From Nitrosococcus watsonii C-113 (GTDB lineage: Bacteria > Pseudomonadota > Gammaproteobacteria > Nitrosococcales > Nitrosococcaceae): a stretch of 64,000 nucleotides of DNA. How positions within the stretch are numbered: position 1 is the first letter of the stretch; each line of letters begins with the position of its first letter. The stretch is from NCBI RefSeq assembly GCF_000143085.1, contig NC_014315.1, positions 2,510,001-2,574,000 of the forward strand, in the 5' to 3' direction. This document shows, piece by piece, positions 15,822-30,474 of the stretch. The position numbers were made by a program, and so were the translations under genes. Below the pieces are notes generated by a model that was not told the DNA's origin, searched no databases, and was given only the letters and a program-made list of their open reading frames with translations.

Positions 15822-17189
15822 CTAAGATTTGGCAGGCTTAAAATCGGCGGGGTCCAGAGTATGACGTTGGAGAAGTTTATAAAAATCGGTGCGATTACGC
15901 CGGGCTAACCGGGACGCCCGAGTCACATTACCATCGGTAATTTTAAGTAGACCCGCAAGATATTCCTGCTCGAATTGCCTTCGCGCATCAGCAAAGGAAG
16001 GAAATTGACCTGATTGCTGGCGCAGCGCTTTTTTTACTAGCTTGGCGGAAATGATAGGTGTGGTCGACAAAACCACGGTTTGTTCCACCACATTACATAG
16101 CTGACGAACATTGCCAGGCCAAGGGGCACTCACCAATAACTCGATTGCTTCAGCCGAAAATCCTCGAATGTTTTTTTTGCTCCCGCGCCGAAAGGTGAGT
16201 AGAAAATGATTGGCAAGAAACAGGATATCTTCCCGCCGTTCAGCGAGAGAGGGAATCTCCAAAATCACAACATTAAGCCGATAATAAAGATCCTCCCGGA
16301 AGTTACCATCCCGCACCTCCGCATCCAGATCTTTGTGGGTGGCCGAAATAATGCGTACATCCACCTTTACCGTAGAGGTATTTCCTACTGGCCGTACTTG
16401 CTGCTCTTGTAGAGCTCGCAGCAATTTTACCTGGAGAGCAGGTGGCATATCGCCAATTTCATCTAAAAACAAGGTGCCACCATGAGCAGCCTGAAATAAT
16501 CCTGGATGATCCCGAGTTGCGCCGGTAAATGCGCCCTTGGCGTGGCCAAATAACTCAGATTCCAACAATAACTCCGGAATAGCCGCGCAGTTAACAGCAA
16601 TAAAGGGTTGTTTGCTACGCGGGCTTGCCTTGTGAATAGCTTTAGCCAGTAACTCTTTGCCTGTGCCACTATCCCCCCGTAAACAAATACTGGCCTCGCT
16701 TTCGGCCACCAGCCGGGCCTGACTGAGTAGATCCTCCATCAAGGGGCTGCGGGTGATAATTTCCTCACGCCAACTCTCTGGGGGAGGGGCTTCCGAATCG
16801 TGGCAAATACCGGAAACGCGAAGCGCCTTTTCCAATTGGCTCAATAGCTCCCGGCTATTATAAGGCTTGGTCAGAAAAGCAAAAACTCCATTTTTAGTGG
16901 CCTGCACCGCATCAGGAATAGAACCATGGGCGGTAAGAATGATCACCGGTAATGCTGGGTTTTTGCGGTGAATGCAATCCGCTAACGCCATCCCATCCAT
17001 GCCTCCCATTCGCAAATCCGTGATCACGGCGTGGGGACGGGCTAATTCCACCTGGGCTAGCGCTTCTTCTCCGCTTCCCGCTTTAACAGGCTCGTAGCCA
17101 CCGTTCTCTAAACGCATAGAGAGTAACGACAATAAATCGCGATCATCGTCTACCAATAAAACTCTGTTATTTTCAGTCATTTGCTTCAT
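15822..17189 (-). CDS. glrR: Sigma-54-dependent response regulator GlrR (QseF-like)
   Basis: A 455-residue NtrC-type regulator. The receiver domain occupies residues 8-125 with phospho-acceptor Asp in HAVITDLRMGG near 57. The AAA+ domain (about 145-380) has Walker A GDSGTGKELL, the sigma-54-contacting GAFTGA loop and Walker B GTLFLDEIGDMP. A Fis-type helix-turn-helix lies at the end (DGNVTRASRLARRNRTDFYKLL). The gene overlaps the yfhG-like lipoprotein gene by 17 bp, and the kinase gene precedes that. This glrK-yfhG-glrR order is that of the E. coli locus controlling glmY and rpoE. What it activates here is unknown. Confidence 0.9.
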   Translation of the reverse strand: MKQMTENNRVLLVDDDRDLLSLLSMRLENGGYEPVKAGSGEEALAQVELARPHAVITDLRMGGMDGMALADCIHRKNPALPVIILTAHGSIPDAVQATKNGVFAFLTKPYNSRELLSQLEKALRVSGICHDSEAPPPESWREEIITRSPLMEDLLSQARLVAESEASICLRGDSGTGKELLAKAIHKASPRSKQPFIAVNCAAIPELLLESELFGHAKGAFTGATRDHPGLFQAAHGGTLFLDEIGDMPPALQVKLLRALQEQQVRPVGNTSTVKVDVRIISATHKDLDAEVRDGNFREDLYYRLNVVILEIPSLAERREDILFLANHFLLTFRRGSKKNIRGFSAEAIELLVSAPWPGNVRQLCNVVEQTVVLSTTPIISAKLVKKALRQQSGQFPSFADARRQFEQEYLAGLLKITDGNVTRASRLARRNRTDFYKLLQRHTLDPADFKPAKS

Positions 17190-17943
17190 TCTTCTGCTCA
17201 GGGAACTGCAAATCTTCCTGGGATTGGTTTCGGTACTCGAGCCGCTTTTCTATAGTTTTGATCGCTTCAAGCTTTTGCTCTAATGTTTCCGCCCTTCCTC
17301 GTTCATCTTCTAATTGCTGCTCCAAACTTTTAGCCCACTCTTGCTCTTGCTTACGGCGGCCATCAAGATATTTCAACCCGCTTCTCAAACGTCTCACCTG
17401 TTCTTGCTGTTGTTGAAGCTGCTCTTGAAGTAAGCGGTAACGCCGTTTCTGTTGGGCTTCTTCCATAAGGAAACCCTGCAAGAAAAGGGCTAAATCATAA
17501 AGCCCTTTGGCCCCCTCATATTCTTTGGCATCCTCCAACTCGGTCTTTAAAAAAGATCGTAGCATAGCCTGGGCTTGCTCTGAGTCTTGGAAAGGGACTT
17601 CGGGCAGGGAGAGGAGCAAAATGAGCTGCAAACGATCAAAGGCTGTAGGTTCTTTGGCGGTAGCCTGCCACGCCCGATCCAGTTCCCGCTGTAGTTCCGC
17701 TTCCGACAAGGAGTGTAAACCCCGATAGTACTGAAGTAAAAGCTCCGAATCCCCAGGCTCTTGTTCCAACGGGTTGGGTGATGGGGTAGACAGCTTATAA
17801 GCAGGTGCCGAGAGTTCATAAACCGGAATTGGAGACCCCGGCTTCAAACCAGTGCAGCCTCCTAATAAAAAAAGAGCCAGCATGACTCTCCCTACCCCTG
17901 CAACCGTCCCATAATCCGCCAACAACGCTCTCACGAACGCCAC
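17173..17943 (-). CDS. YfhG/QseG-like outer-membrane lipoprotein
   Basis: A lipoprotein signal with lipobox LLGGC lies near residue 29 (an alternative start at Met-21, 17883, would give a shorter n-region). The mature part is almost entirely helical and charged. It has a long coiled coil from about 165 to 245, rich in Gln, Glu, Arg and Leu (EQLQQQQEQVRRL, then EQEWAKSLEQQLEDE). It lies between the kinase (13-bp overlap) and the response regulator (17-bp overlap), exactly where E. coli has yfhG/qseG. QseG is reported to interact with the kinase from the periplasm; the same role here is inference from position. Confidence 0.82.
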   Translation of the reverse strand: MAFVRALLADYGTVAGVGRVMLALFLLGGCTGLKPGSPIPVYELSAPAYKLSTPSPNPLEQEPGDSELLLQYYRGLHSLSEAELQRELDRAWQATAKEPTAFDRLQLILLLSLPEVPFQDSEQAQAMLRSFLKTELEDAKEYEGAKGLYDLALFLQGFLMEEAQQKRRYRLLQEQLQQQQEQVRRLRSGLKYLDGRRKQEQEWAKSLEQQLEDERGRAETLEQKLEAIKTIEKRLEYRNQSQEDLQFPEQKNEAND

Positions 17944-19406
17944 TCCTCTGCTACCACGGGTAGAGTCACGCGAAAATGCGCGCCCTCTCGACTCTCCTTG
18001 ACAAGCTCGATATTGCCCCCGTGGGCGAGGACGATTTCTTTCACAATTGAAAGCCCAAGGCCAGTCCCCTTGACAGGGCCTGATGGCTGCGTTTTACCTT
18101 GATAAAAGGAATCAAATATCCGTACGCTATCCTCGGGAGCAACGCCAGAACCTGAATCATGCACCTCCAGGCAAACCTCGTCCTCTTCCTGAGTTAACTT
18201 AATTTCCACTGAGCTGCCCGATGGCGAATATTTAAGGGCATTAGACAGTAGGTTATCAATAATAATTTTCAAATGTTCCCGGTCACCAAAAATTTCTACC
18301 GGATTCAAAGCTGCGATAAGCTCAACCTGCTTTGATAAGCTACTCGGTATATGATCGTTTAACACGATCTTAATCAATTGATCCAGCCGCACTACTTCGG
18401 GGGTACGCTCGATTTGATTAGTACCAGCCAAATTAAACCGGAGCATATCTTCAATCAATTTCTGTAAACGCAGGCTATTGCTACGTAAAATCCGGGCTAC
18501 TTCCAATTGCTGTGCGCTCAAATGGCCAATGATTTGATCGCACAGTAATTCCGATCCTTCACGCAGGGCCGCCAGCGGTGTTTTAAGCTCGTGAGAGACG
18601 TGCCGGAGAAATTTTATTTTGGTTTCTTCTAGCTCGACCAAACGACAACGTAGCCAATCCAGCTGTTGTCCCAGCACTTCCAGATCTCGGGGGCCGGTTA
18701 CCTCGATGGGCGTATCGAAATCTCCATTCCCAAGGCGCCTGATAGCTTTATCAAGCTGGTGAAAATACCTTCTAATCAGGAAGGTAAATAAAACAGCCAA
18801 TAACCCTGCCGCGGGGATAAGACCTAAAGCCTGCCAAAAAAGCGATTTCTGAGCCTCTCGCGCCGTCTCTTGTAAAGTATCTACCTCCTTGCCCACCAAT
18901 TGGTTGCTTTCCGCCAGCAAAGTCCGGGCCTGCCGAGCCAAACCTAAAAATTGGTTAGCCGCTTGTTTGCTAGCCTCGGAGTTTAATGTATAAACACTCA
19001 AGACATCATAAATAGCATTTTCCTCCCGCGCCAGGGAGTCAAACCCCTGTCGCTGCACCTCGCTAAGCGGTAATTCTAACATTTGCTCTAGTATATCCTT
19101 GAATTTACGCCGGTTAGCCATATAAGCTCGATACAGCGCAGGATCATCTAGCACCTGGAACTGCCTTGCAGCCCGTTCCATAGCGATAAGCTGCTGTACC
19201 AGGATCCGGCTCCCTTGAGTCACCTGGACGCTTTTATAAACAGCTACCGTGCTTTGGCGCGCTAAATGTTCCATTTGAACGGCCGCAAAAATAAGGCCGG
19301 CGGATAAAGGTACCGCCACAATCAAAAACCCACCCAAAATCAAAGTGATAAAAGAGTTTAGGCGCACCCAATAGAAGCGTCCAGGTCGGTATGTTTTAGC
19401 CCGCAT
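17931..19406 (-). CDS. glrK: Sensor histidine kinase GlrK (QseE-like)
   Basis: The frame extends to 19649, but I start at ATG 19406 (MRAKTYRPGRFYWVRLNSF), directly before the first membrane helix; the upstream part reads like non-coding sequence. Order: helix TM1, a helical periplasmic sensor of about 130 residues, TM2 (WQALGLIPAAGLLAVLFTFL), HAMP, then the HisKA H-box FLRHVSHELKTPLAALREG with the phospho-His. The HATPase domain has N-box DNLLSNALKYSPSG, G1 DSGSGV and G2 GTGLGLSIV. It phosphorylates the GlrR-like regulator two genes downstream. Confidence 0.9.
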   Translation of the reverse strand: MRAKTYRPGRFYWVRLNSFITLILGGFLIVAVPLSAGLIFAAVQMEHLARQSTVAVYKSVQVTQGSRILVQQLIAMERAARQFQVLDDPALYRAYMANRRKFKDILEQMLELPLSEVQRQGFDSLAREENAIYDVLSVYTLNSEASKQAANQFLGLARQARTLLAESNQLVGKEVDTLQETAREAQKSLFWQALGLIPAAGLLAVLFTFLIRRYFHQLDKAIRRLGNGDFDTPIEVTGPRDLEVLGQQLDWLRCRLVELEETKIKFLRHVSHELKTPLAALREGSELLCDQIIGHLSAQQLEVARILRSNSLRLQKLIEDMLRFNLAGTNQIERTPEVVRLDQLIKIVLNDHIPSSLSKQVELIAALNPVEIFGDREHLKIIIDNLLSNALKYSPSGSSVEIKLTQEEDEVCLEVHDSGSGVAPEDSVRIFDSFYQGKTQPSGPVKGTGLGLSIVKEIVLAHGGNIELVKESREGAHFRVTLPVVAEEWRS

Positions 19407-19669
19407 TGATTTGATCAATTGCTGCCCTAAGAGGACAATTCTAGAATTCCAAGAGACCCGGGCGCTTTTCCTAACTCTCTCAAAAGGCCAGCGGATCGAT
19501 AGTAAACAGTAGCAGTTTGACCCTCCGTTTATGAAACTTAGAACCTGGCCCTCTATAATAAAATAGGCATTCGCCGCCGAGGATGATGACGAAAAAGCCC
19601 TTGCACGCATTACTACATCCTCTGGCATGGCAGCATTTAATAGGGCCAAAATGGTAATAAATTATTGTT
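19407..19669. promoter_or_regulatory. Divergent promoter region between glrK and the FN3/amidohydrolase operon
   Basis: 263 bp separate two divergent operons, so it must hold promoters for both. I see AT-rich blocks near 19550-19570 and 19650-19668 but no operator I can name. If the GlrK/GlrR pair controls its neighbour, a sigma-54 promoter or binding site would be expected here; I did not find a convincing TGGC-N8-TTGC element by eye. Confidence 0.45.
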
Positions 19670-20164
19670 ATGAGGATTCAAACCAACATTACAGCAAAGC
19701 TTAGCCCAGCGCTTATAATAGCCTTTTTCTTGATAGCCTTACCCATCTGGGCAGATCCGTCACCTCCTTCCACCCCCGAACTTATCTCCGATAGCCCTAC
19801 GGCAACCGCAGGATTTTACCATCTAAACTGGCAAGGAAGCGATTTATCGATGTTAACCTACGAACTTCAGGAGGCCAATGACATGGAATTTACGCAGCCT
19901 ACAATCCTTTACCGGGGACCAGACCAAGGAACACTGATTAGCGGACAAAACAACGGTCACTACTTCTATCGAGTCCGCGCCTTAAAGCAGGGACAGACAG
20001 CAAGTTCCTGGAGTTCTCCCCGAGCCGTGACCGTGCAGCACCACTCACTTACCCGCGCTTTTGCCTTTTTCGGCGCAGGCGCCACGGTACTCCTGGCCAC
20101 CCTTGCCCTGATAATTTTCGGGGCCTGGCAAAGTCAAAAAGAGGACTCCTCAAAGTATGAATAG
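19670..20164 (+). CDS. Membrane-anchored protein with a single fibronectin-III-like domain
   Basis: 164 residues: an N-terminal signal sequence (hydrophobic core LIIAFFLIALPIWA, cleavage plausible after WA, about residue 28), an FN3-like beta domain (about 33-125) and a C-terminal membrane helix (about 132-153). The FN3-like domain shows LNWQGSDLSMLTYELQEAND, then YRGPDQGTL and YFYRVRALKQGQTASSWSSP. A short charged tail (QSQKEDSSKYE) ends the protein. It is predicted to sit in the inner membrane with the FN3 domain in the periplasm. It is the first gene of the amidohydrolase/symporter run, and its stop overlaps the next start by 8 bp, so it belongs with that system. I do not know a characterised homologue; a substrate-capture or scaffold role is only a guess. 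Confidence 0.75.
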   Translation: MRIQTNITAKLSPALIIAFFLIALPIWADPSPPSTPELISDSPTATAGFYHLNWQGSDLSMLTYELQEANDMEFTQPTILYRGPDQGTLISGQNNGHYFYRVRALKQGQTASSWSSPRAVTVQHHSLTRAFAFFGAGATVLLATLALIIFGAWQSQKEDSSKYE

Positions 20165-21395
20165 GCCTCTTAGGGTAAATTTTGAGCGGCTGCAAGCAGA
20201 TGTGGAGACCTTGTCCCATATTGGCCGACGGGCTGATTACGGCCTTTACCGCATGGCCTTTAGCGAAGCTGATCAGGCAGCCCGTGAATGGTTCCAAGGG
20301 CGCATCCAGGAAGCAGGACTGGATCTTTATATAGACGGCGCCGCTAACATTCATGCCCGCTTCAACTGGAATGGAGAACGCCCCAGCGTCATGACCGGCT
20401 CCCATCTCGATACCGTTCCTGGCGCTGGCCACCTGGATGGAGCCCTAGGCGTATTGGTTGGGCTTGAATGCGTGCGCCGCCTCAAAGAACTCGACCTCTC
20501 TTTACGCTATGCGGTAGAAGCAATTGCCTTTACCGACGAGGAAGGGCGCTTTGGCGGCCTATTGGGATCCCAAGCTATCAGCGGCCAGCTTACCCCGGAA
20601 GCTATCCACCATGCCCGCGACTTAGATGGAATCAGCCTTTCCCAGGCCATGACCGATCAGGGACTTAATCCCGCGGATATCCTGCGAGCACGGCGCAAGC
20701 CAGAAAGTCTCATCGCCTTTTTGGAACTCCACATTGAGCAGGGTCCCGTCCTAGAGAGGCAAGGCATTAGCGTAGGCGTTGTTGAAGGAATTGTGGGCCT
20801 GTTTAAATGGGAGGTGACTCTTAAGGGTACTGCTAACCATGCTGGCACCACGCCCATGGACATGCGCCAGGATTCCTTGCAGGGTCTAGCTGAATTTGCG
20901 GGAGAAATTGCGCGGATTCTGGAAGAAAACGGCGGTCCCCGCAGCGTGGCCACTATTGGCCGGGTCGAGGTTTTTCCTGGAGCCGCTAATGTGATCCCAG
21001 GAAGTGTTAAGTTCTCCCTGGATGTGCGGGATACCGAGGCTACCCTTCTCAAGGAGTTAGCCCATGCTTTCCGTCGCGCCCTCTCGGCAATCGCCCGCCG
21101 CCGAGGGCTCATGTTTGAATTTGAAGTGTTGAGTGAAATTGAACCGGTCAAGTGTGACCCCGGCATCATGGAGACCATCTTTAAGGCAGCCCGAAGTCTC
21201 GGGGTAGAACCACTGCAAATGCCAAGCGGGGCCGCCCATGACACCCAAATCATGGCAGCCCTGACCCGGGCAGGCATGATTTTCGTTCCTAGCCAAGGAG
21301 GACGCAGCCATTCCCCAGCGGAATGGACTCCCTGGGAAGACATCGAAACGGGCGCAAACGTGGCCTTGAATACGCTCTATCAATTAGCCCATTAA
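20157..21395 (+). CDS. M20-family amidohydrolase (N-carbamoyl-amino-acid hydrolase / allantoate amidohydrolase type)
   Basis: A 412-residue, two-metal amidase of the hydantoinase/carbamoylase branch of peptidase family M20. Metal ligands are visible: SHLDTVPGAGHLDGALG (His and bridging Asp, about 82-98), TDEEGRFGG (Glu pair, near 127), ELHIEQGPVLE (His, near 192) and GGRSHSPAEWT (His, near 385). The lid domain (about 210-325) contains GTANHAGTTPMDMRQD, the substrate and dimer-arm signature of this branch. Known members hydrolyse N-carbamoyl amino acids, allantoate, ureidoglycine or beta-ureidopropionate, releasing ammonia and CO2. The exact substrate cannot be read from sequence. A Shine-Dalgarno GAGGA lies 12 nt before the ATG. 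Confidence 0.88.
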   Translation: MNRPLRVNFERLQADVETLSHIGRRADYGLYRMAFSEADQAAREWFQGRIQEAGLDLYIDGAANIHARFNWNGERPSVMTGSHLDTVPGAGHLDGALGVLVGLECVRRLKELDLSLRYAVEAIAFTDEEGRFGGLLGSQAISGQLTPEAIHHARDLDGISLSQAMTDQGLNPADILRARRKPESLIAFLELHIEQGPVLERQGISVGVVEGIVGLFKWEVTLKGTANHAGTTPMDMRQDSLQGLAEFAGEIARILEENGGPRSVATIGRVEVFPGAANVIPGSVKFSLDVRDTEATLLKELAHAFRRALSAIARRRGLMFEFEVLSEIEPVKCDPGIMETIFKAARSLGVEPLQMPSGAAHDTQIMAALTRAGMIFVPSQGGRSHSPAEWTPWEDIETGANVALNTLYQLAH

Positions 21396-21419
21396 TCTTT
21401 AATTTCAATTAGGATCACC

Positions 21420-22154
21420 ATGACCCATTCCGACGTACCCTTAAAGGAAAGTTTTGATCCGCTGCGGGCCAGCTACCGGGAAACCGTTACCGAAATTCCC
21501 GCCGTGGTGGAATCCCTAGAAAGACGCCACACCGCACTGCTGGTGGTAGACTTGCAGTACCTGGATGCCGCGCCTGGCTATGGAGTTTTTTCCCATTTAG
21601 CCAAGGGGAAAGTGCCTAAAGATACCCCCGAATTTTATTATTTCGATCAGCTTGAGCGGATCATTTTGCCCAACGTGCAGCGTCTGCAAGCCGCCTTTCG
21701 GGGCAATAACCTGGAAGTCATTCATACCCGCATCCAGTCCCTGACCAAGGATGGCCGTGATCGTGGCCCGCAGCACAAACGCTTGGGGCTCCATGCCCCC
21801 GCTGGTTCCAAGGAGGCTGAGTTTCTACCGGCAATCGCCCCCCAGGGAGATGAGATCATCATCAGCAAAACCGCCAGTGGGGTTTTTAATTCCACTAATT
21901 TGTCCTATATCTTGCACAACCTAGGAATTACGGGCCTTTTTGTGGCGGGAGTCTATACCAACGAATGCGTCTCCACGGCTATTCGCGACGCCTGCGATTT
22001 AGGTTTTTTCACCACCCTTATTCAGGATGCCTGCACCACCGTCACTCCAGAGCTGCAAAAGGCGACCCTGCGTGCCCTGAAAGATCGCTATGCTCGAGTC
22101 TTCTCCACCGATGAGGCCATTGCTGAAATCAACCAGGTAGTAGTGGCCACATGA
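21420..22154 (+). CDS. Isochorismatase-superfamily amidohydrolase
   Basis: A cysteine hydrolase of 244 residues with the full Asp-Lys-Cys triad: LLVVDLQYLDA (Asp, about 43), IISKTASGVFNSTNL (Lys, about 144) and VYTNECVSTAIRDACDLGF (Cys, about 183), the last preceded by the cis-peptide region. Relatives include N-carbamoylsarcosine amidase, ureidoacrylate amidohydrolase (RutB), biuret hydrolase and nicotinamidase; most act on ureido or amide groups. The N-terminal extension (about 1-36) and the loop with HTRIQSLTKDGRDRGPQHKRLG fit the ureidoacrylate/biuret-hydrolase side better than nicotinamidase, but this is judgement by eye. It sits 25 bp after the M20 gene and overlaps the symporter start by 4 bp (ATGA). 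Confidence 0.85.
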   Translation: MTHSDVPLKESFDPLRASYRETVTEIPAVVESLERRHTALLVVDLQYLDAAPGYGVFSHLAKGKVPKDTPEFYYFDQLERIILPNVQRLQAAFRGNNLEVIHTRIQSLTKDGRDRGPQHKRLGLHAPAGSKEAEFLPAIAPQGDEIIISKTASGVFNSTNLSYILHNLGITGLFVAGVYTNECVSTAIRDACDLGFFTTLIQDACTTVTPELQKATLRALKDRYARVFSTDEAIAEINQVVVAT

Positions 22155-23599
22155 ATTCAGTTCATAGCGCCATCCTGGACCCGCGCCTGGGTTGGATCAC
22201 GCTGGCCATGCTCAGCATAGTGTGGGTTTGGCTCGGCTGGTTTTGGGGACGCAATGCCAAGGCTCTGGATGAATATGTACTGGCCGGGCGCCGGGTAGGA
22301 CTTGCCCTAGGCACTGCCACTGCCATGGCCACCTGGGTTACCAGCAATACCACCATGGCCGCGCCCCAACTGGCTTTTCAAATGGGCATCTGGGGTATGT
22401 TGGGTTATTCCCTGGGGGCGGTGGGGCTGCTCATGTTCGCCCCCCTTGCCCAGCGAATCCGCAAGCTTATGCCCAATGGCTACACCAGCGGCGATTTTAT
22501 CCGCTTGCGCTATGGAAAAGGGGCCTGGCGGCTTTTTCTTGCTATCTCCCTATGCTACGGTCTGGGCTGGCTAGTTAGTATGGGAATGGCGGGGGGAATC
22601 CTCATCAATGCCCTGACAGGTATTCCCTACCATTATGGCATGACGATCATTCTAAGCATTTGCGTCAGTTATACCTTGCTGGGAGGATTCCGCGCCGTTA
22701 TCGGTACTGATTTCATCCAATCGCTCCTGATTCTATCGGGGCTAGTGGTGATTGCCTGGCTTGCCATCGATAAGGTCGGTTTTGACCGTATCCATGCCGC
22801 GGTTGTCGAGAAGCGACCCCAATTACTTAACCTCCTCATGCCTGCCGCTTTAATGTTTCTTTTCAATAATTTGTTGTTTGGGGTGGGGGAAGTGTTCCAT
22901 TCCAATGTATGGTGGAGCCGGGCGTTTTCCTTTCGGGAAGGCATAGGGTTTAAGGCCTATTTCACCGCCGGCATCCTGTGGATGCCAATTCCGGTCGTCG
23001 CGGGTTTTATTGCCCTGGCGGTTCCCGCTCTAGATCTCAATATCCCGGCGGCCGACATGGTAGGCCCCATGGTTGCCGGAGAATTGCTGGGGGTTACCGG
23101 CGCGGTCCTGGTGCTGGTTATGGTGTTCTCGGCCCTCTCATCAAGCCTGGATTCCTTATTGGCGGCAACCAGTATCCTGGTAGTGGAAGATCTCTACCGG
23201 CGTCACTGGCGCCCCCATGCCACGGCCTCGCAACTCCGTAAAGCGACGGTGATCGCGATCATCGGTCTTGGAATCTTAACCTGGCTTCTGTGCGTCCCCC
23301 GTTTAGCGACGCTGGCCGAATTGCTCTATTTCACTGGCGCTTTTGTCGCCAGCACCATCTGGCCCATCGCGGCGGGTCTCTATTGGCGCCGCACCAACCC
23401 CACTGGCGCAGTGGTAGCCATGGGCCTAGGCAGCATGGCCGGTCTCGCGGGTTATTTCGCGATTGGCTTCTATGTCGCCGCCCTCATAGGTGCCTTCGTA
23501 TCAATGGTCATTGTGCTGCTTAGCACCTGGCTTTGGCCCAGGGATTTTAACTGGGATAACCTACACGAATCTCATCCACAAGGGGAAAGTCCATGCTGA
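22151..23599 (+). CDS. Sodium:solute symporter (SSS family)
   Basis: 482 residues with about 13 predicted membrane helices. The core SSS signatures are present: a GRR.. motif after TM1 (YVLAGRRVGLALGTATAMATW), the GGFRAVIGTDFIQSLLIL segment in the middle, and FSALSSSLDSLLAATSILVVEDLYRR, whose Ser pair belongs to the Na2 site. It should import a small solute with sodium. Position between two carbamoyl/ureido hydrolases and a carbamoyltransferase suggests a ureido compound, hydantoin or similar as cargo; DUR3 urea transporters belong to the same family. It overlaps both neighbours (4 bp upstream, 7 bp with the 40-residue gene downstream). Confidence 0.9.
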   Translation: MNSVHSAILDPRLGWITLAMLSIVWVWLGWFWGRNAKALDEYVLAGRRVGLALGTATAMATWVTSNTTMAAPQLAFQMGIWGMLGYSLGAVGLLMFAPLAQRIRKLMPNGYTSGDFIRLRYGKGAWRLFLAISLCYGLGWLVSMGMAGGILINALTGIPYHYGMTIILSICVSYTLLGGFRAVIGTDFIQSLLILSGLVVIAWLAIDKVGFDRIHAAVVEKRPQLLNLLMPAALMFLFNNLLFGVGEVFHSNVWWSRAFSFREGIGFKAYFTAGILWMPIPVVAGFIALAVPALDLNIPAADMVGPMVAGELLGVTGAVLVLVMVFSALSSSLDSLLAATSILVVEDLYRRHWRPHATASQLRKATVIAIIGLGILTWLLCVPRLATLAELLYFTGAFVASTIWPIAAGLYWRRTNPTGAVVAMGLGSMAGLAGYFAIGFYVAALIGAFVSMVIVLLSTWLWPRDFNWDNLHESHPQGESPC

Positions 23600-23715
23600 T
23601 ATCGGCTGAATGGTTAACCCGATTAGTGACGGTAGCCTTGATTATTACTACCACCGCGCCTTTTATTTTGCTGTTATTACTGCTCCGTGATTGGTTGAAG
23701 GGACGGCTATGGTGA
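23593..23715 (+). CDS. Small single-helix membrane protein (40 aa) coupled to the symporter
   Basis: A 40-codon frame starts at ATG 23593 inside the last codons of the symporter and ends at TGA 23713-23715, overlapping the start of the carbamoyltransferase (ATG 23709). It begins MLISAEWLTRLVTVALIITT, continues with a Leu/Ile-rich helix, and ends RDWLKGRLW. The composition is one membrane helix with a basic C-terminus. Overlaps on both sides argue that it is translated. Other SSS transporters are accompanied by small one- or two-helix partners, so an accessory subunit is the natural guess. It is too short for family assignment by eye. Confidence 0.72.
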   Translation: MLISAEWLTRLVTVALIITTTAPFILLLLLLRDWLKGRLW

Positions 23716-24791
23716 AAAAATTTGACCCCTCATTAAGGAAACCCTTACAACCGAAGGATGATACGGCGGGGATTGAACGGCCCTTGGCTTTAATGGAGCA
23801 AGTGCCAGAAGATCCCGCCCCACTGGTGAGCTTGGCTAACCGCCCCGTGCTTAGCGCCCGCCAATTCGACCGAGATAAGATCATTCAATTGAGCCGCTTG
23901 GCGGCCCTTTATGAAACCACCCCTACCTGGCTACAGCTCCCCCTAGCCGGGAAAATCCTCATTAATGCCTTCTATGAGCCCAGCACCCGGACCCGCCTTT
24001 CCTTTGAAAGCGCCTGGCATCGGCTAGGAGGCGATGTGATGCCCATCACCGATCCGGCGACCACCGGCATCGCCAAGGGCGAAACCTTAGCTGATGTGGC
24101 TGAAATGTTCAATAATTACGGAGACTTGGTCGTACTGCGGGATAGCAGCGAAGAGGCCGTCTACCAAATGCTGGAGTCCTTACGCATTCCTATCATCAAT
24201 GCCGGTAATGGCATCGATGAGCATCCCACTCAAGCCTTAGCCGATCTGTATACACTGTTTAAATGGCGGCCGCAGCTTATGGCAGCTAAGGTTTCCGCCT
24301 CGGCCCAAATACGAATAGGCATCGTGGGCGCACCCCGCTACATGCGCACAGTGCGCAGCCTGCTGTTGTTCCTAGCCCTATTTGCGCCAGCAATAAAGGA
24401 GGTCGTGGTTATCTGCCAGCAAGAAGCCGTATTTGCAAAAGAGCAACGAGAAGAACTGGCCCTTTCCGGCCTTACCCTTCGTACCGCCCGTCATCTCAAT
24501 CCAGAACTTCCTGCCTTGGATGTGATCTATATCAATTCCATCGCTTGGCGGGGGGATAGCTTCGAAAAAATAGGGGAAGACTTGCGACTTTGCCGATCCT
24601 CTCCCCTCAAACCAGGGGCGATTATTCTCCATCCTTTAGCCCGGGGAAAAGAACTCTCCACCGATTTGGATAACACCGAGCATAACTGGTACTTTGCCCA
24701 GGCCCGGGGCGCCGTCTTTATGCGCATGGCCCTGCTCACTTCCCTCGTGCAACGAATCGATCAAGTGATGGATACTCCCATACAAAGCTAA
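23709..24791 (+). CDS. Aspartate/ornithine carbamoyltransferase-like protein of unknown acceptor
   Basis: The frame opens at TTG 23691, but ATG 23709 has a good AAGGGA 8 nt upstream and overlaps the previous stop, giving 360 residues. Carbamoyl-phosphate elements are intact: YEPSTRTRLSFESAW (about 90-105), AKGETLADV with the ATCase 80s-loop Lys, and HPTQALADL near 172. HPLARGKEL near 319 corresponds to the ATCase HPLPR loop. The acceptor site differs: where ATCase has the aspartate-binding RVQKER segment, this protein has SIAWRGDSF, and OTCase motifs are also absent. The N-terminal extension of about 40 residues is unusual. I infer a carbamoyltransferase with another acceptor, or one working in reverse to make carbamoyl phosphate from a ureido compound. 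It is not the housekeeping PyrB. Confidence 0.82.
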   Translation: MVKKFDPSLRKPLQPKDDTAGIERPLALMEQVPEDPAPLVSLANRPVLSARQFDRDKIIQLSRLAALYETTPTWLQLPLAGKILINAFYEPSTRTRLSFESAWHRLGGDVMPITDPATTGIAKGETLADVAEMFNNYGDLVVLRDSSEEAVYQMLESLRIPIINAGNGIDEHPTQALADLYTLFKWRPQLMAAKVSASAQIRIGIVGAPRYMRTVRSLLLFLALFAPAIKEVVVICQQEAVFAKEQREELALSGLTLRTARHLNPELPALDVIYINSIAWRGDSFEKIGEDLRLCRSSPLKPGAIILHPLARGKELSTDLDNTEHNWYFAQARGAVFMRMALLTSLVQRIDQVMDTPIQS

Positions 24792-24926
24792 GTGCCTTAA
24801 TCCCGGAGAATGCTTTCTCCCCAATTATTAACCGACCCAATAAGTAACGCTCAAAGCTTCCTACTTGGGAAGCACCGCTTTCCATCTCCTTGCAGCTGAT
24901 TATTAACCCACAAAAGGAATGAATTT

Positions 24927-26939
24927 ATGTGTGGTATTGCTGGCTACATTCATCTAAACCCTAGCCGCCCTATCGACCCCCAAACCCTCGTGGCCATGGC
25001 CGCCATCCAACATCATCGTGGTCCTGATGGCTTCGGTTATCAACTCATCGACAAGCAAGGGGTCGGCTTCAGCCACGCCCGCCTCTCCATTATCGACCTG
25101 GAAGCAAACCGGGGCCGGCAGCCTTTTACCTCCGAAGATGGCCGGCTGCTACTTACCACTAATGGGGAATTTTATGACTACAAGCGATTGCGGGCCGATT
25201 CCATCTCCCGTGGCGCCCGCTTTCGCACTAAAAGCGACTCAGAGTTAGTACTCCATCTCTACCCCCGGCTGGGGCTGCGAGGGATGTTGCCTCACTTACG
25301 GGGAGAATTCGCCTTTGCCCTTTATGATCAAGAAAGGGATCGGTTAATGCTGATCCGAGACCGCTTCGGTATCAAACCCCTCTACTGGACCCAGGTCAAT
25401 GACACCCTGGTATTTGGCTCCGAAATCAAGGCCCTGTTTGCCCACCCTGAAGTGCCACGCTGCTTCAGCCCCCAGGGCCTGTTTCATCAGCTCATGCAAA
25501 CCATGGTGCCAGGCAGCACCGCCTTCGAGGGCATTCAGCAAGTCAAACCGGGACATGTAGTCATGGTGGAACGCAAGCAGGGTAATTTCCAAATCCGGGA
25601 AGAGAAATACTGGGATTTGGATTTTCCCCGGCTCTCGGAACGCTCCGACTCCCTCCCTGAAGAACACCATATTGAAGGAGTCCGGGCTCAGCTTACCGAG
25701 GCGGTACAACTTCGGCTAGAAGCGGATGTCCCGGTGGGCTGTTATCTCTCCGGCGGTATCGACTCCTGCATTGCCTTGGGCCTCTCGGCTGCTATCCAAC
25801 AAGCGCCGGTCAAAGCCTTTACTATCGGCTTTGATGATGTGGACTACGATGAAACCCCCATCGCCCAAGAAATGGCGCGAGCCACAGGAGCTGATCAAGA
25901 TATCATCCATCTTAAGGCTGATCACCTCTATGACCACTTCGCTGAAACCCTCTGGCACACGGAACGAACCATCTATAACACTCTCGGTGTCGCTAAACTG
26001 CTCATGAGTCGTCATGTCCACCAAACCCAATACAAAGTCGTGGTGACTGGGGAGGGCTCGGATGAATTATTCGGCGGCTACCCCTCTTTCCGCCGGGATA
26101 TGATTCTCCATGGGCTGGAAACTCTCTCTGCCCAGGAGCGGGTCCAGTGGGAGCGGGGTTTAGCCGAGAGTAACCAACTTTTCCGGGGAGCCATGCTAGC
26201 CGAGAACGAGACCCATAATCCTGCCCTGGACGCCCTAGTAGGCTTCACACCAAGTTGTCTGCAACCTTGGCTCCACGCGGCGGAACATGTCCCCGCCTTG
26301 TTGAGTGTCCCGCTCCGGGAGCAAGTTGAAAGCTATGACCCAGGCCAGGCTATTGCCGAGCATTTGGACGGGGATATGCTGGCCAACCGGCACCCCCTGG
26401 ATAAGGCCCAGTATGTCTGGATAAAAACCATGCTGGAGGGGCAAATCTTGACCTGGGGAGGCGATCGGGTGGATATGGCCAATTCCATGGAAGCCCGCCC
26501 CCCCTTTCTGGACCATCACCTGGCCGAATTTGCCACGGGACTGCCCCCCGCCATGCGGATCAAGGGGCAAAAGGAGAAATATGTGCTACGGGAAGCTATG
26601 CGGGGACTCCTGCCCAACGTGCTTTATGAACGGGAAAAGTTTGCCTTCATGGCGCCACCCGCCCATACCGATCCTAAAAAATGGGCGGCCATGAACCAAC
26701 TAGCTCAAAAATACCTGACCGAGGAGGCCATTACCCATACTGGATTACTGGACGCGCAAGGGGTTAAGGCTCTGTTTGCCTTGCATGAAGCTGAAGGGAC
26801 GCCCTTATCGACTAAAGTCCGGCTAGATGCGGTTATCAACCATCTTTTGGGGGTGCAAATCCTGCATCAGCATTTTATCGCCACTGATATCCCGGCGCTG
26901 GCTCGGCAGCGGGCGCAGGAGTTGGGCTGGCATATTTAA
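24927..26939 (+). CDS. asnB: Asparagine synthase (glutamine-hydrolysing) family amidotransferase
   Basis: A 670-residue AsnB-type protein: an N-terminal class II glutaminase domain with catalytic Cys-2 (MCGIAGY) and the HRGPDG and NGEFYDY motifs, then a synthetase domain with the PP-loop SGGIDSCIALGL near residue 279 and the TGEGSDELFGGYP segment. MEARPPFLDHHL near 525 is also typical. It transfers glutamine-derived ammonia to an acyl-adenylate, classically aspartate. The gene lies 135 bp after the carbamoyltransferase, with its own Shine-Dalgarno (AAAGGAA), so it may be cotranscribed or separate. Insertions relative to short bacterial AsnB leave room for a different acceptor. The symbol refers to the family. 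Confidence 0.85.
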   Translation: MCGIAGYIHLNPSRPIDPQTLVAMAAIQHHRGPDGFGYQLIDKQGVGFSHARLSIIDLEANRGRQPFTSEDGRLLLTTNGEFYDYKRLRADSISRGARFRTKSDSELVLHLYPRLGLRGMLPHLRGEFAFALYDQERDRLMLIRDRFGIKPLYWTQVNDTLVFGSEIKALFAHPEVPRCFSPQGLFHQLMQTMVPGSTAFEGIQQVKPGHVVMVERKQGNFQIREEKYWDLDFPRLSERSDSLPEEHHIEGVRAQLTEAVQLRLEADVPVGCYLSGGIDSCIALGLSAAIQQAPVKAFTIGFDDVDYDETPIAQEMARATGADQDIIHLKADHLYDHFAETLWHTERTIYNTLGVAKLLMSRHVHQTQYKVVVTGEGSDELFGGYPSFRRDMILHGLETLSAQERVQWERGLAESNQLFRGAMLAENETHNPALDALVGFTPSCLQPWLHAAEHVPALLSVPLREQVESYDPGQAIAEHLDGDMLANRHPLDKAQYVWIKTMLEGQILTWGGDRVDMANSMEARPPFLDHHLAEFATGLPPAMRIKGQKEKYVLREAMRGLLPNVLYEREKFAFMAPPAHTDPKKWAAMNQLAQKYLTEEAITHTGLLDAQGVKALFALHEAEGTPLSTKVRLDAVINHLLGVQILHQHFIATDIPALARQRAQELGWHI

Positions 26940-27068: not shown

Positions 27069-27953
27069 TTAAGAAAGCGCCAATTCCAATGCCGTCCGCC
27101 AACTGGGCAGTTGAATGCCAAAGGTATCCTTTATCCGGGTATTATCCAAACAGGAAAAGGCAGGACGCCGGGCGGGGATCGGATAATCCGCGCTAGGAAT
27201 AGCTTCCAACCTTGCTACCGGCCCCGCCCCTTGCGCTAGGCGCGCCAAAATAGCCTGCGCAAAACCATGCCAAGTCGTCTTTCCCCCACAGCTTAGGTGG
27301 TAAATACCTGCCTGGGGAATAGAGTCCTGCCTCTGGCCCCGGGACTGGGCAACGATTTGCGCCGTTCCTTCCGCAATCAAACGGCTCCAGGTAGGTGTGC
27401 CCCATTGATCATTCACCACCGTAAGCACTTCCCTTTCCTGGGCCAAGCGCTGCATGGTTAACAAAAAATTATGCCCCCTCAACCCATAGACCCAACTGGT
27501 GCGCAAAATCAAATAGGCTCCACCCACGGCAGCAATGGCTTGCTCTCCCGCCAATTTGGTTTGGCCATAAACGTTCAGAGGCCGAGGAGTATCCCCCTCG
27601 CGATAGGGGTAAACGCCCTGTCCATCAAACACATAATCAGTGGAATAATGAATCAATGCCGCGCCCTGCTGACGGGCTGTTTCCGCCAATACGCCAGGAG
27701 CCTTGCCATTAATAGCCAACGCTTGCTCCGGTTCCTCCTCTGCCTTATCCACGGCGGTATAAGCTGCGGCATTGACAATCAAGGTCGGCTGGATCTCGGC
27801 AAGGTAAGGGCGAATACTGTCCACTTGAGCCAGATTCAGACGCTCCCGCCCCGGAATAAACACCTCCCCCAAGGGCGCCAAGGACCGCTGTAACTCCCAG
27901 CCCACCTGGCCTGAGGCGCCTACTAGAAGTATCCGCCTCTGAGGGCCATTCAC
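27069..27953 (-). CDS. rmlD: dTDP-4-dehydrorhamnose reductase
   Basis: RmlD reduces dTDP-4-keto-L-rhamnose to dTDP-L-rhamnose with NAD(P)H. The 294-residue SDR has the dinucleotide motif LLVGASGQVGWELQRSL at the start. The HYSTDYVFDG segment near 103 and the active-site YGQTKLAGEQ near 129 (Tyr-x3-Lys) are present. It is the last gene of zwf-rmlBACD, its ATG overlapping the rmlC stop by 4 bp. Confidence 0.95.
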   Translation of the reverse strand: MNGPQRRILLVGASGQVGWELQRSLAPLGEVFIPGRERLNLAQVDSIRPYLAEIQPTLIVNAAAYTAVDKAEEEPEQALAINGKAPGVLAETARQQGAALIHYSTDYVFDGQGVYPYREGDTPRPLNVYGQTKLAGEQAIAAVGGAYLILRTSWVYGLRGHNFLLTMQRLAQEREVLTVVNDQWGTPTWSRLIAEGTAQIVAQSRGQRQDSIPQAGIYHLSCGGKTTWHGFAQAILARLAQGAGPVARLEAIPSADYPIPARRPAFSCLDNTRIKDTFGIQLPSWRTALELALS

Positions 27954-28495
27954 GGCAATAGCTCCGCCTCCTTAAAAGCACAACCAGCTTGATCCTTGGC
28001 GGAAATGAGCGGCACCTCCTCCAAAGGCCAATCAATGGCCAGATCGGGATCATCCCAGCGAATGCAGCGCTCATACTCCGGCGCATAGTAGGCGGTAGTT
28101 TTATATAAAAATTCCGCATACTCGCTTAACACCAAAAAACCGTGAGCAAACCCTCCTGGTATCCAAAGCTGGCGCCTGTTTTCCGCCGAGAGACGGTAAC
28201 CCACCCAGCGGCCAAAGCCAGGAGAATGGCGCCGCAGATCAACGGCCACGTCAAAAACTTCACCAGCAATTACCCGAACTAACTTCCCTTGGGGCTGGTG
28301 AATTTGGTAGTGTAATCCCCGCAGAACATGCTTGGCCGAATAGGAATGGTTATCCTGCACAAACTCGGCCTGGATATCGGTTGCCGCCGCAAAGGCAACC
28401 CGATTATAGCTTTCAAAGAAAAATCCCCGTTCATCGCCAAAGACACGGGGTTCGATCAACAAAACGCCGGGGAGCGGTGTTGAGGTTGCCTTCAT
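27950..28495 (-). CDS. rmlC: dTDP-4-dehydrorhamnose 3,5-epimerase
   Basis: RmlC epimerises C3 and C5 of dTDP-4-keto-6-deoxyglucose. This 181-residue cupin has the substrate-binding EPRVFGDERGFFFESYN, the catalytic-His region QDNHSYSAKHVLRGLHYQ and the later PGGFAHGFLVLSE with catalytic Tyr in the following strand. It lies between rmlA (18 bp) and rmlD (overlap 4 bp). Confidence 0.95.
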   Translation of the reverse strand: MKATSTPLPGVLLIEPRVFGDERGFFFESYNRVAFAAATDIQAEFVQDNHSYSAKHVLRGLHYQIHQPQGKLVRVIAGEVFDVAVDLRRHSPGFGRWVGYRLSAENRRQLWIPGGFAHGFLVLSEYAEFLYKTTAYYAPEYERCIRWDDPDLAIDWPLEEVPLISAKDQAGCAFKEAELLP

Positions 28496-28513
28496 GGAAA
28501 TCAGGGACTCTTT

Positions 28514-29392
28514 TTAATACACTTTATCCTGCAACAAGCTTAGCAAGTAGTTACCATAACCGCTTTTTTGCAGCGGCTCGGCTAAACGCTCCAACGCTTC
28601 AGCACCGATATAACCCATCCGATAGGCAATTTCCTCGGGGCAGGCAATCTTCAGACCTTGCCGTTTTTCGATAGTGTGAATGAACAAGGCGGCGTCCAGC
28701 AGGGAATCGTGGGTACCGGTATCCAGCCAGGCCATGCCGCGGCTCATCACTTCCACAAACAACTGCCCTTGTCTCAAGTAATGCCGGTTGACATCGGTAA
28801 TCTCCAGCTCACCCCGCGCGGATGGGGTTAGGGACTCGGCGATTTCTATTACCTGGGCATTATAAAAATACAACCCTGTCACCGCATACCGGGATTTGGG
28901 CACCACCGGTTTCTCCTCAATGCTCAAAACCTTATGGCCATCTTCAAACTCTACGACGCCGTAACGCTCTGGATCGTGGACGGGATAAGCAAATACCGTA
29001 GCGCCCGAATCTCGCTTGGCAGCCTCCTGTAATAGCATAGAAAGATCATCGCCATGGAAGATATTATCCCCCAGTATCAAAGCACAGGGCTCCTCCCTAA
29101 TGAAGTCCTTGCCGAGGATAAAAGCCTGGGCGATGCCCTCGGGCCGGGACTGCACCTGGTAAGAAAAGCTCAACCCCCACTGGGAACCTTCCCCCAATAA
29201 CTGCTCGATACGGGGCAAATCCTGGGGGGTGGAAATAACCAGAATCTCCCGGATACCGGCCAGCATCAAGACCGAGAGGGGATAGTAGAGCATGGGTTTA
29301 TCGTAAACAGGCAGAAGCTGCTTGCAAACCGGTTGGGTGACGGGATACAGCCGGGTTCCCGACCCCCCCGCCAGGATAATCCCCTTACGCAT
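28514..29392 (-). CDS. rmlA: Glucose-1-phosphate thymidylyltransferase
   Basis: RmlA makes dTDP-glucose from dTTP and glucose 1-phosphate. The open frame runs to 29596, inside rmlB, but the real start is the ATG at 29392 ([17 protein letters not shown]), which overlaps the rmlB stop by 8 bp and places the nucleotide-binding GGSGTRL loop correctly. The product is 292 residues, the usual length. Other features are [32 protein letters not shown] (metal Asp) and [18 protein letters not shown]. Confidence 0.95.
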
Positions 29393-30461
29393 GGGCTTGC
29401 CCCTTGGTACCCAAACGCTCTCGGCAATAACTGCCATCTTGCACCCGTCGGCACCAATTCTGATTATCCAGATACCATTGCACCGTCTTGCGCAACCCCG
29501 TCTCAAAGGTTTCCCGTGGCCGCCAGCCCAGTTCGCGGGCAATTTTTCCCGCATCAATGGCATACCGCCGATCATGACCGGGCCGATCCGCCACAAAGGT
29601 AATCAGGGAGCGGTGAGGGCGATGGGAAGACTGGGAAAACAGTTCATCGAGAAGTTGGCAAATGAGTTCCACTACCTCGACGTTGGTTTTTTCATTATGC
29701 CCGCCAATATTGTAAGTTTCTCCCGGCCGTCCCTTATCAAGGACGATTTCCAGCGCCCGGACATGATCTTCTACATATAGCCAATCCCGCACATTATCAC
29801 CCGCGCCATACACCGGCAGGGATTTGCCCTCAATACCATTAAGGACCATCAGCGGGATAAGTTTTTCCGGAAATTGGCGGGGACCGTAATTATTGGAGCA
29901 ATTGGTAATCAAAACCGGCAATCCATACGTATGATGCCAGGCCCGCACAAGATGATCCGAAGCGGCTTTGCTCGCGGCGTAGGGGGAATTAGGCTGATAG
30001 GGAGAGTCTTCCCGGAACAGCCCCGTTGCGCCTAAGGAACCAAACACTTCATCGGTGGAAACATGATGAAAACGAAACCGAGCTTGGGCGCTTTTAGCAA
30101 GCTTCCGCCAATACTCCAAGGCTGCTTCCAGCAAAATATAAGTCCCCGTCACATTGGTGTCGATAAAGGCCGCTGGGCTGTCAATGGAGCGATCCACGTG
30201 GGATTCGGCGGCCAGATGCAGCACCGCCTCCGGCTGGTAACGGGCAAATATTTGCGCCATACTCTCCCGCTGGCAGATATCGGCATGGACAAATTCATAG
30301 CGGGGATGGGAAGCAAGGTCTTCCAGGGACTCCGGATTGCCGGCATAGGTGAGTTTATCCACATTAATCACCCCCCGATCCGTGGCTGCAAGAAAATGCC
30401 GCACCACGGCAGAACCAATAAAACCGGCCCCTCCAGTAATCAAAAGCGGTTGCTGAATCAT
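29385..30461 (-). CDS. rmlB: dTDP-glucose 4,6-dehydratase
   Basis: RmlB oxidises, dehydrates and reduces dTDP-glucose to dTDP-4-keto-6-deoxyglucose with bound NAD. The 358-residue SDR shows the Rossmann motif [16 protein letters not shown], the catalytic [10 protein letters not shown] (Thr-Asp-Glu), the YxxxK motif in [14 protein letters not shown] and [19 protein letters not shown]. It starts the rml genes 13 bp after zwf. Confidence 0.95.
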
Positions 30462-30474
30462 AAGCCTTTATTGC

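What the first reader, a model, noticed from the sequence alone, without database searches (positions are those of the whole stretch)
19670..26939. Possible undescribed ureido/carbamoyl-compound pathway: FN3 anchor, two amidohydrolases, SSS symporter, small TM protein, atypical carbamoyltransferase and AsnB
Five genes plus a 40-residue ORF are packed with overlapping or near-overlapping ends on the plus strand, followed by AsnB. Two hydrolases of families that cut ureido/N-carbamoyl groups, a sodium symporter and a carbamoyltransferase together suggest import of an N-carbamoyl compound and recovery of carbamoyl, CO2 and ammonia, or the reverse as a biosynthetic route. I know no described pathway with exactly this set. 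For an ammonia oxidiser, such a system would yield both substrate and CO2.
Basis: partly seen in the sequence, partly recalled or inferred. Interest (0 to 1): 0.8.

Follow-up and report, generated by a model that had tools for sequence, protein, structure and literature searches.

The report
Gene cluster for a salt-protectant molecule
A tightly packed set of seven genes in an ammonia-oxidising bacterium most likely makes, takes up and recycles an unusual urea-like derivative of glutamine that protects cells against salt, a compound described in 1991 from one purple bacterium and, as far as this search could see, still without assigned genes.

Summary
In detail: seven genes (FN3 anchor, M20 N-carbamoyl hydrolase, isochorismatase-fold hydrolase, SSS symporter, 40-residue membrane protein, ATCase-like carbamoyltransferase, AsnB-like amidotransferase) lie at 19670-26939, and the set is conserved in order across Gammaproteobacteria and, reordered, in Spirochaetota. 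The best explanation is not ureide nutrition but a compatible-solute system. The carbamoyltransferase keeps the carbamoyl-phosphate site but has lost ATCase's Arg229/Gln231; AsnB would amidate its product. [quoted passage not shown] The genome of that species' type strain (DSM 4180) carries the genes, and its only other carbamoyltransferase matches are PyrB and ornithine carbamoyltransferase. Named hosts are mostly marine or haloalkaliphilic; MarR/EctR-like regulators adjoin many copies; within the ammonia-oxidiser family the cluster tracks ectoine synthase; carbamate kinase was over cut-off in 0 of 7 host genomes. The hydrolases look like a recycling module, FN3 + SSS + 40-mer like a transporter module. 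My searches of an open-access library found no paper assigning CGA genes. All substrates are inferred; nothing has been assayed.

The parts
19670..20164 (+). FN3-domain anchor: signal peptide, FN3-like beta-sandwich, C-terminal transmembrane helix; probable partner of the symporter
   Evidence: alignment; AF2 and Foldseek; FN3-like gene found in 60 of 70 SSS loci and in none of the 10 loci without SSS; travels with SSS in detached copies L107, L108
20157..21395 (+). M20 N-carbamoyl-L-amino-acid hydrolase, proposed last recycling step
   Evidence: NF006771 559 bits (cut-off 399), TIGR01879 386 bits, ErtE model 394 bits (cut-off 520); PDB best 3n5f N-carbamoyl-L-amino acid hydrolase; 131 invariant columns in 39 rows
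21420..22154 (+). isochorismatase-fold cysteine hydrolase, proposed to remove the 1-amide
   Evidence: PF00857; BiuH model only 67 bits (cut-off 370); D47, K152, C185 (L001 numbering) invariant in 39 rows
22151..23599 (+). SSS-family sodium:solute symporter
   Evidence: PF00474 100 bits, TIGR00813 145 bits, under its cut-off of 184; orthologue near CTase in 70 of 80 loci and elsewhere in the genomes of L020, L007 and L009
23593..23715 (+). 40-residue single-pass membrane protein following the symporter
   Evidence: equivalent after SSS in 70 of 70 loci with SSS and CTase, and after detached SSS in L107 and L108
23709..24791 (+). ATCase-like carbamoyltransferase with altered acceptor site, proposed glutamine N-carbamoyltransferase
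   Evidence: clade separate from PyrB and OTCase; AF2 model and Foldseek
24927..26939 (+). AsnB-like glutamine-dependent amidotransferase, proposed to amidate the alpha-carboxylate
   Evidence: near CTase in 78 of 80 loci
19531..19559 (+). promoter-like site upstream of the cluster (weak)
   Evidence: 2 such sites in the stretch against 6.0 expected in shuffles, so no evidence of function

Best explanation
[quoted passage not shown] Step 1: the ATCase-like enzyme transfers carbamoyl from carbamoyl phosphate to the alpha-amino group of L-glutamine. Step 2: the AsnB-like enzyme activates the alpha-carboxylate with ATP and amidates it with glutamine-derived ammonia, giving an uncharged solute. 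Uptake or salvage: the SSS symporter with the 40-residue membrane protein and the FN3 anchor. Recycling when salt falls: the isochorismatase-fold enzyme removes the 1-amide, then the M20 enzyme, whose characterised relatives need a free alpha-carboxylate (recalled), removes the carbamoyl group as CO2 and ammonia. Shown here by computation: gene content, conservation, modules, active-site residues, named hosts, presence in the CGA producer's genome. Inferred: every substrate and product, the order of the hydrolases, the direction of transport, control by salt.
For: (1) CGA is reported from E. [quoted passage not shown]). FOUO00000000 is E. marismortui DSM 4180T; L020 (NZ_FOUO01000006) carries M20-hydrolase-CTase-AsnB with a MarR-family gene 50 bp upstream, and the SSS orthologue with FN3 and the 40-mer lies elsewhere in that genome. 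That genome has three carbamoyltransferase matches: this one, a PyrB and an ornithine carbamoyltransferase, both of the latter over their NCBIfam cut-offs. (2) CTase: S52 T53 R54 T55 K84 R105 H134 Q137 and R167 (E. coli ATCase numbering) kept in 64 of 64 readable rows; R229 is A or S, Q231 is A, S or V, K232 is W in all 64 (83 sequences available, 18 dropped by my extraction as incomplete, 1 unreadable fragment). It fits an acceptor with one carboxylate and a neutral side chain. It forms a clade apart from PyrB and OTCase. (3) AsnB: glutaminase (C1 R49 N74 G75 E76 D98) and synthetase (SGGxDS, E348, K449) residues kept in 75 of 75 rows (83 available), while the position of E. coli R387 holds G in 75 of 75 (gapped region, role recalled). 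(4) AsnB in 78 of 80 loci; SSS in 70 of 80. [quoted passage not shown] (6) A MarR-family gene within 150 bp of the cluster in 27 of 84 loci searched; regulators 43-52% identical to the EctR beside the own ectoine synthase gene lie 0.7-5.8 kb away in 18 more, and two class-sample loci have a 47-50% one about 0.3 kb upstream. (7) Of six genomes of the own family, CTase and ectoine synthase occur in the same four. (8) arcC over cut-off in 0 of 7 host genomes. (9) The closest named equivalog of the M20 enzyme in NCBIfam is ErtE, N-carbamyl-L-glutamate amidohydrolase.
Against: No enzyme, metabolite or expression data. CGA is reported, in what I read, from one species; I found no report for Nitrosococcus, Thioalkalivibrio or Idiomarina. 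A Raman study of E. marismortui extracts saw no CGA signal and calls it a minor solute, though the compound was not in its reference library (PMC3857566); PMC7824335 says such solutes occur in halophiles only in addition to betaine. Glutamine as acceptor is deduced from lost residues and from the known product; another neutral amino acid is not excluded. No MarR/EctR homologue lies in the window itself. The regulators next to the Thioalkalivibrio and Ectothiorhodospira copies are only 28-33% identical to EctR, little above MarR-family level; 14 of the EctR-like ones are 4-6 kb away, on the other side of unrelated genes. One host, E. lacustris (L079), is from low-mineralised soda lakes (abstract of PMC10224512), so strong halophily is not universal. 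Two hydrolases of N-carbamoyl type beside a symporter would also suit a catabolic route.
Confidence: 0.72

Rival explanations
1. The cluster makes a compatible solute, but a different N-carbamoyl amino-acid amide (for example of asparagine or another neutral amino acid).
For: The lost Arg229/Gln231 only say that the acceptor is not aspartate-like; no residue here identifies glutamine. CGA itself is documented in one species.
Against: The one organism with a known solute of this type has this CTase as its only carbamoyltransferase match besides PyrB and OTCase, and the family is one clade. The closest M20 equivalog acts on an N-carbamoyl glutamate.
Confidence: 0.13
2. One reading: import and breakdown of a ureido or N-carbamoyl compound as a nitrogen and carbon source, with the CTase running backwards.
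For: A symporter, a carbamoylase-family M20 enzyme and an isochorismatase-fold hydrolase together.
Against: ATP-consuming AsnB is near CTase in 78 of 80 loci; no carbamate kinase over cut-off in 7 of 7 host genomes, though only 2 of 14 control genomes were over it; 25 of 80 loci have SSS-CTase-AsnB with no hydrolase of the pair found nearby; family members that carry amoA can lack the set.
Confidence: 0.1
3. The CTase and AsnB are spare pyrimidine and asparagine enzymes that happen to sit beside a transporter and two hydrolases.
For: Both would be named PyrB-like and AsnB-like by homology.
Against: Genuine PyrB and OTCase exist in the own, DSM 4180 and T. sibirica genomes; the aspartate site is lost in all 64 readable rows; the linkage holds across phyla.
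Confidence: 0.02

Closest known systems
[quoted passage not shown] not read, cited in PMC1224877, PMC3857566, PMC7876524)
   Same: the compound predicted here; the type-strain genome carries all the genes
   Different: in what I read it is known only as a metabolite, without genes
N-acetylglutaminylglutamine amide (NAGGN) osmolyte system with AsnO (Sagot et al. 2010; not read, cited in PMC13060819)
   Same: neutral, N-capped, C-amidated glutamine derivative; amide made by an AsnB-like enzyme; TIGR03104 scores 310 bits
   Different: below the TIGR03104 cut-off of 570; carbamoyl cap from an ATCase-like enzyme instead of an acetyl cap; one glutamine instead of two
Aspartate carbamoyltransferase (PyrB)
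   Same: fold and carbamoyl-phosphate site
   Different: Arg229, Gln231 and part of the 230s loop lost; below the TIGR00670 cut-off; linked to AsnB
ErtE and other M20 N-carbamoyl-L-amino-acid hydrolases
   Same: family, metal-site residues, likely N-carbamoyl amino-acid substrate
   Different: 394 bits against the ErtE cut-off of 520; falls in NF006771, named 'allantoate amidohydrolase', probably a misnomer here
Ectoine locus with its MarR-type regulator EctR/CosR (passages of PMC7876524 and PMC5924519)
   Same: osmolyte genes next to a MarR-type regulator, as in many copies of this cluster
   Different: unrelated enzymes and product; no such regulator in this window

Membership tests
CGA biosynthesis and recycling system (proposed) | present in the organism from which CGA was isolated | tested here: met
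   L020 = NZ_FOUO01000006, type-strain genome of E. marismortui, DSM 4180; that the 1991 isolation used this very strain was not checked
CGA biosynthesis and recycling system (proposed) | carbamoyltransferase accepting a neutral one-carboxylate amino acid (glutamine) | tested here: inconclusive
   residue pattern fits; no activity data
CGA biosynthesis and recycling system (proposed) | CGA accumulates with salt and depends on these genes | not testable with these tools
   needs NMR or LC-MS and mutants
NAGGN system | amidotransferase above the TIGR03104 cut-off | tested here: not met
   309.9 against 570.1 bits
NAGGN system | acetyltransferase/ligase partner beside the amidotransferase (recalled) | tested here: not met
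   genes on both sides are other families: CTase before it, rml genes and G6PD after it; not searched genome-wide
Aspartate carbamoyltransferase (PyrB) | carbamoyl-phosphate-binding residues | tested here: met
   64 of 64 readable rows
Aspartate carbamoyltransferase (PyrB) | Arg229 and Gln231 of the aspartate site (roles recalled) | tested here: not met
   kept in 0 of 64 readable rows
Aspartate carbamoyltransferase (PyrB) | above the TIGR00670 cut-off | tested here: not met
   192.5 (window) and 182.8 (DSM 4180) against 236.95 bits; the genuine PyrBs score 300-302
Glutamine-dependent asparagine synthase superfamily | N-terminal Cys nucleophile, SGGxDS loop, E348, K449 | tested here: met
   75 of 75 rows
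Catabolic carbamoyltransferase pathway | carbamate kinase in the genome | tested here: not met
   TIGR00746 over cut-off in 0 of 7 genomes; in 2 of 14 controls
FN3 domain | FN3 beta-sandwich fold | tested here: met
   AF2 model pLDDT 89, Foldseek hits mainly FN3 domains, best E 5e-5; no Pfam match at E 0.001
EctR/CosR-regulated osmolyte locus | EctR-like MarR gene beside the cluster | tested here: inconclusive
   absent from the window; MarR-family gene within 150 bp in 27 of 84 loci, but 28-33% to EctR there; 43-52% in 18 loci at 0.7-5.8 kb

The most novel reading that the evidence does not exclude
CGA, treated as a curiosity of one purple bacterium, is a widespread compatible solute of marine, haloalkaliphilic and ammonia-oxidising bacteria, made by a carbamoyltransferase of new specificity plus an AsnB-type amide-forming enzyme, and moved by a three-part sodium symporter: SSS, an obligatory 40-residue membrane subunit and an FN3-domain anchor on the outer face of the membrane.
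Probability: 0.5. Interest if true: 0.82.

Novelty: new variant of a known kind. Interest (0 to 1): 0.75.

Why it matters
If true, it would give genes to a compatible solute known as a metabolite since 1991, and show that the capacity is not confined to one species: the CTase motif was found in 16 of 274 sampled genomes of the class (15 of 222 genera). It would explain how some halophiles with no ectoine synthase, such as the Idiomarina loihiensis, Kangiella aquimarina and Thiorhodospira sibirica genomes tested, can make a neutral solute. It would add a new specificity to the carbamoyltransferases, correct names now carried by homology (aspartate carbamoyltransferase, asparagine synthase, allantoate amidohydrolase), and propose a multi-part SSS transporter with a conserved 40-residue partner. 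Each step can be tested with one enzyme assay or one NMR experiment.

Tried and rejected
Ureide nutrition for ammonia oxidation: rejected as lead explanation because the set follows neither ammonia oxidation nor the hydrolases and no carbamate kinase was found over cut-off. NAGGN system: rejected on the TIGR03104 score and the missing acetylating partner next door. Spare PyrB/AsnB: rejected on residues and on the presence of genuine PyrB and OTCase. Salt-regulated expression of these genes in print: two searches for Thioalkalivibrio and Idiomarina and one for Nitrosococcus solutes gave nothing on these genes. Promoter and terminator scans were uninformative (2 promoter-like sites against 6.0 expected). 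NCBIfam has no EctR/CosR model, so the regulators could only be compared pairwise. The MarR regulator was looked for in the window and not found. Mapping of the AsnB acceptor site onto AsnO or PesC residues was not possible from the text read. Rows dropped: CTase alignment used 65 of 83 sequences (18 dropped by the script as lacking a start codon or reaching a contig end, one further row an unreadable fragment; the window's own copy was represented by its genus mates); AsnB 75 of 83; ISO 39 of 42 and M20 39 of 39 at over 55% identity. One search kept the best 80 of 152 relatives; the other 72 were not examined. In the script the 'isolates' tally is wrong (the stored titles lack the MAG tag) and is not used.


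Full report
OBSERVATION. Gene ends overlap at four of six junctions. The carbamoyltransferase probably starts at ATG 23709, coupled to the stop of the 40-residue ORF. The second hydrolase is a cysteine hydrolase of the isochorismatase fold, not a metal amidohydrolase. The FN3 reading, unsupported by Pfam, is borne out by an AlphaFold2 model (mean pLDDT 89) whose PDB matches are mainly FN3 domains. The flanks are a histidine kinase and response regulator upstream and rml sugar genes and glucose-6-phosphate dehydrogenase downstream, with no visible link.

CONSERVATION. A scan of species genomes with the carbamoyltransferase found 152 relatives, of which the best 80 were kept. In these 80 loci AsnB lies nearby in 78, SSS in 70, the M20 enzyme at 55% identity or more in 39 and the cysteine hydrolase in 40; 14 further loci have a more distant M20 nearby, and the two such enzymes I scanned fall in the same NCBIfam subfamily over its cut-off. 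One of the two loci without AsnB (L015) ends just after the CTase; the other is Thiorhodospira sibirica, which has AsnB and SSS orthologues elsewhere in its genome. To avoid picking by neighbourhood, I screened 274 genomes of the class with a DNA pattern for the CTase motif YIN[AS]I[AS]W: 16 match, the own one included (15 of 222 genera), and the reversed control pattern none. In the 15 other loci, 12 have FN3-M20-hydrolase-SSS-40mer-CTase in the window's order and 3 have M20-hydrolase-CTase-AsnB; AsnB is found in 14, the last locus ending at its contig end. Four of these 15 are probably contigs already seen. In Leptospiraceae and Spirochaetaceae the same genes are reordered, which argues for a functional unit moved between phyla rather than a frozen operon.

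MODULES. The genes fall into three modules. (a) CTase + AsnB: the most constant. (b) SSS + 40-mer + FN3 anchor: the 40-mer follows SSS in 70 of 70 loci that have SSS and CTase; an FN3-like gene was found in 60 of the 70, and in none of the 10 loci without SSS; five of the ten exceptions are SSS genes at or near a contig start. In Ectothiorhodospira the three sit together elsewhere in the genome (L107, L108). (c) M20 + cysteine hydrolase: present in sulfur-oxidising and purple Gammaproteobacteria, Nitrosococcus and Spirochaetota copies, not found as a pair in the Idiomarina and Kangiella copies.

ENZYMES. The CTase model is an ATCase fold and the family forms a clade apart from PyrB and OTCase (23 against 22 rows, SH-aLRT 99). 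All carbamoyl-phosphate residues checked and Arg167 are kept in 64 of 64 readable rows, but Arg229 and Gln231 are kept in none, replaced by small residues, and Lys232 by Trp. The roles of Arg229 and Gln231 in holding aspartate are recalled; PMC6981877 (passages) states that Arg167 interacts with aspartate. The simple reading is an acceptor with one carboxylate and an uncharged side chain. Genuine PyrB and OTCase, over their curated cut-offs, are separate genes in the own, E. marismortui and T. sibirica genomes. AsnB keeps its glutaminase and synthetase residues in 75 of 75 rows and scores 310 bits to the NAGGN amidotransferase model against a cut-off of 570. The M20 enzyme's closest named equivalog is ErtE, N-carbamyl-L-glutamate amidohydrolase.

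WHAT IT MAKES. [quoted passage not shown] This is a known compatible solute of Ectothiorhodospira marismortui (passages of PMC1224877 and PMC3857566; original 1991 paper not read). The E. marismortui DSM 4180 type-strain genome is FOUO00000000 (PMC8877833), and locus L020 from it carries M20-hydrolase-CTase-AsnB. A survey of osmotic genes in phototrophs gives no gene for this solute in the passages I read, and notes that T. [quoted passage not shown] T. sibirica has CTase, AsnB and SSS, scattered. Four paper searches for the compound returned no paper on its genes; the library is open-access only, so this is not proof of absence from print.

OSMOTIC LINK. Named hosts (Ectothiorhodospira, Thioalkalivibrio, Idiomarina, Pseudidiomarina, Aliidiomarina, Kangiella, Thiohalobacter, Thiohalophilus and others) are marine, halophilic or haloalkaliphilic by general knowledge; an exception in degree is E. 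lacustris from low-mineralised soda lakes (abstract). A MarR-family gene lies within 150 bp upstream of 27 of 84 loci searched, including DSM 4180; in 18 more, a regulator 43-52% identical to the EctR beside the own ectoine synthase lies 0.7-5.8 kb away; two class-sample loci have one, 47-50% identical, about 0.3 kb upstream of the FN3 gene. EctR and CosR are MarR-type repressors of osmolyte genes (passages of PMC7876524). The 28-33% identity of the first group to EctR is weak, and the window has no such gene. In the own family, the four genomes of the genus have both CTase and ectoine synthase and the two other genera have neither, although all three genomes tested have the ammonia/methane monooxygenase A gene. 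Five CGA-cluster hosts from other groups (E. marismortui, T. sibirica, I. loihiensis, K. aquimarina, a Spirochaetaceae genome) have no ectoine synthase match.

DIRECTION. Carbamate kinase, needed to profit from running a carbamoyltransferase backwards, is over cut-off in 0 of 7 host genomes, with only weak sub-cut-off matches in 6, as in most controls. Together with ATP-consuming AsnB this favours synthesis. The hydrolase pair then reads as recycling: the M20 class needs a free alpha-carboxylate (recalled), so the cysteine hydrolase should act first on the 1-amide. This order is inference.

VERDICT. The unit is real and conserved. A compatible-solute function is well supported; CGA as the exact product is the best single reading at about 0.72. 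The compound and the enzyme families are known; the pathway, the CTase specificity and the three-part transporter would be new.

Noticed in passing
window 23593-23715 and L001-L080: A 40-residue single-pass membrane protein follows this SSS symporter in 70 of 70 loci with SSS and CTase, with a conserved -D-W-x-K-x-x-LW-like end; probably an unannotated transporter subunit.
   Followed up: partly
window 19670-20164; L107 6310-6807; L108 7163-7627: The FN3-domain anchor family has no Pfam match but a clear FN3 fold and goes with the symporter, also where the symporter is detached from the cluster.
   Followed up: partly
L007, L109, L110 (Thiorhodospira sibirica): CTase, AsnB and SSS orthologues are kept but dispersed over the genome; no FN3-like match was found beside the SSS.
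   Followed up: partly
L036, L039-L041, L043, L046: Leptospiraceae and Spirochaetaceae MAGs carry the set in another order (SSS-CTase-M20-hydrolase-AsnB), suggesting transfer between phyla.
   Followed up: no
window 20157-21395: NCBIfam subfamily NF006771 'allantoate amidohydrolase' takes in these M20 enzymes (559 bits, cut-off 399); the name is probably wrong for them.
   Followed up: partly
L070 18143-18634 and other Idiomarinaceae loci: EctR-like regulators sit 4-6 kb from the cluster; the I. loihiensis genome has no ectoine synthase match, so this EctR relative must control something else.
   Followed up: no
window 15822-19649 and 27069-31974, minus strand: Flanks: NtrC-type response regulator and histidine kinase upstream; rmlD, rmlC, a nucleotidyl transferase (rmlA-like) and glucose-6-phosphate dehydrogenase downstream; no visible link to the cluster.
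   Followed up: no
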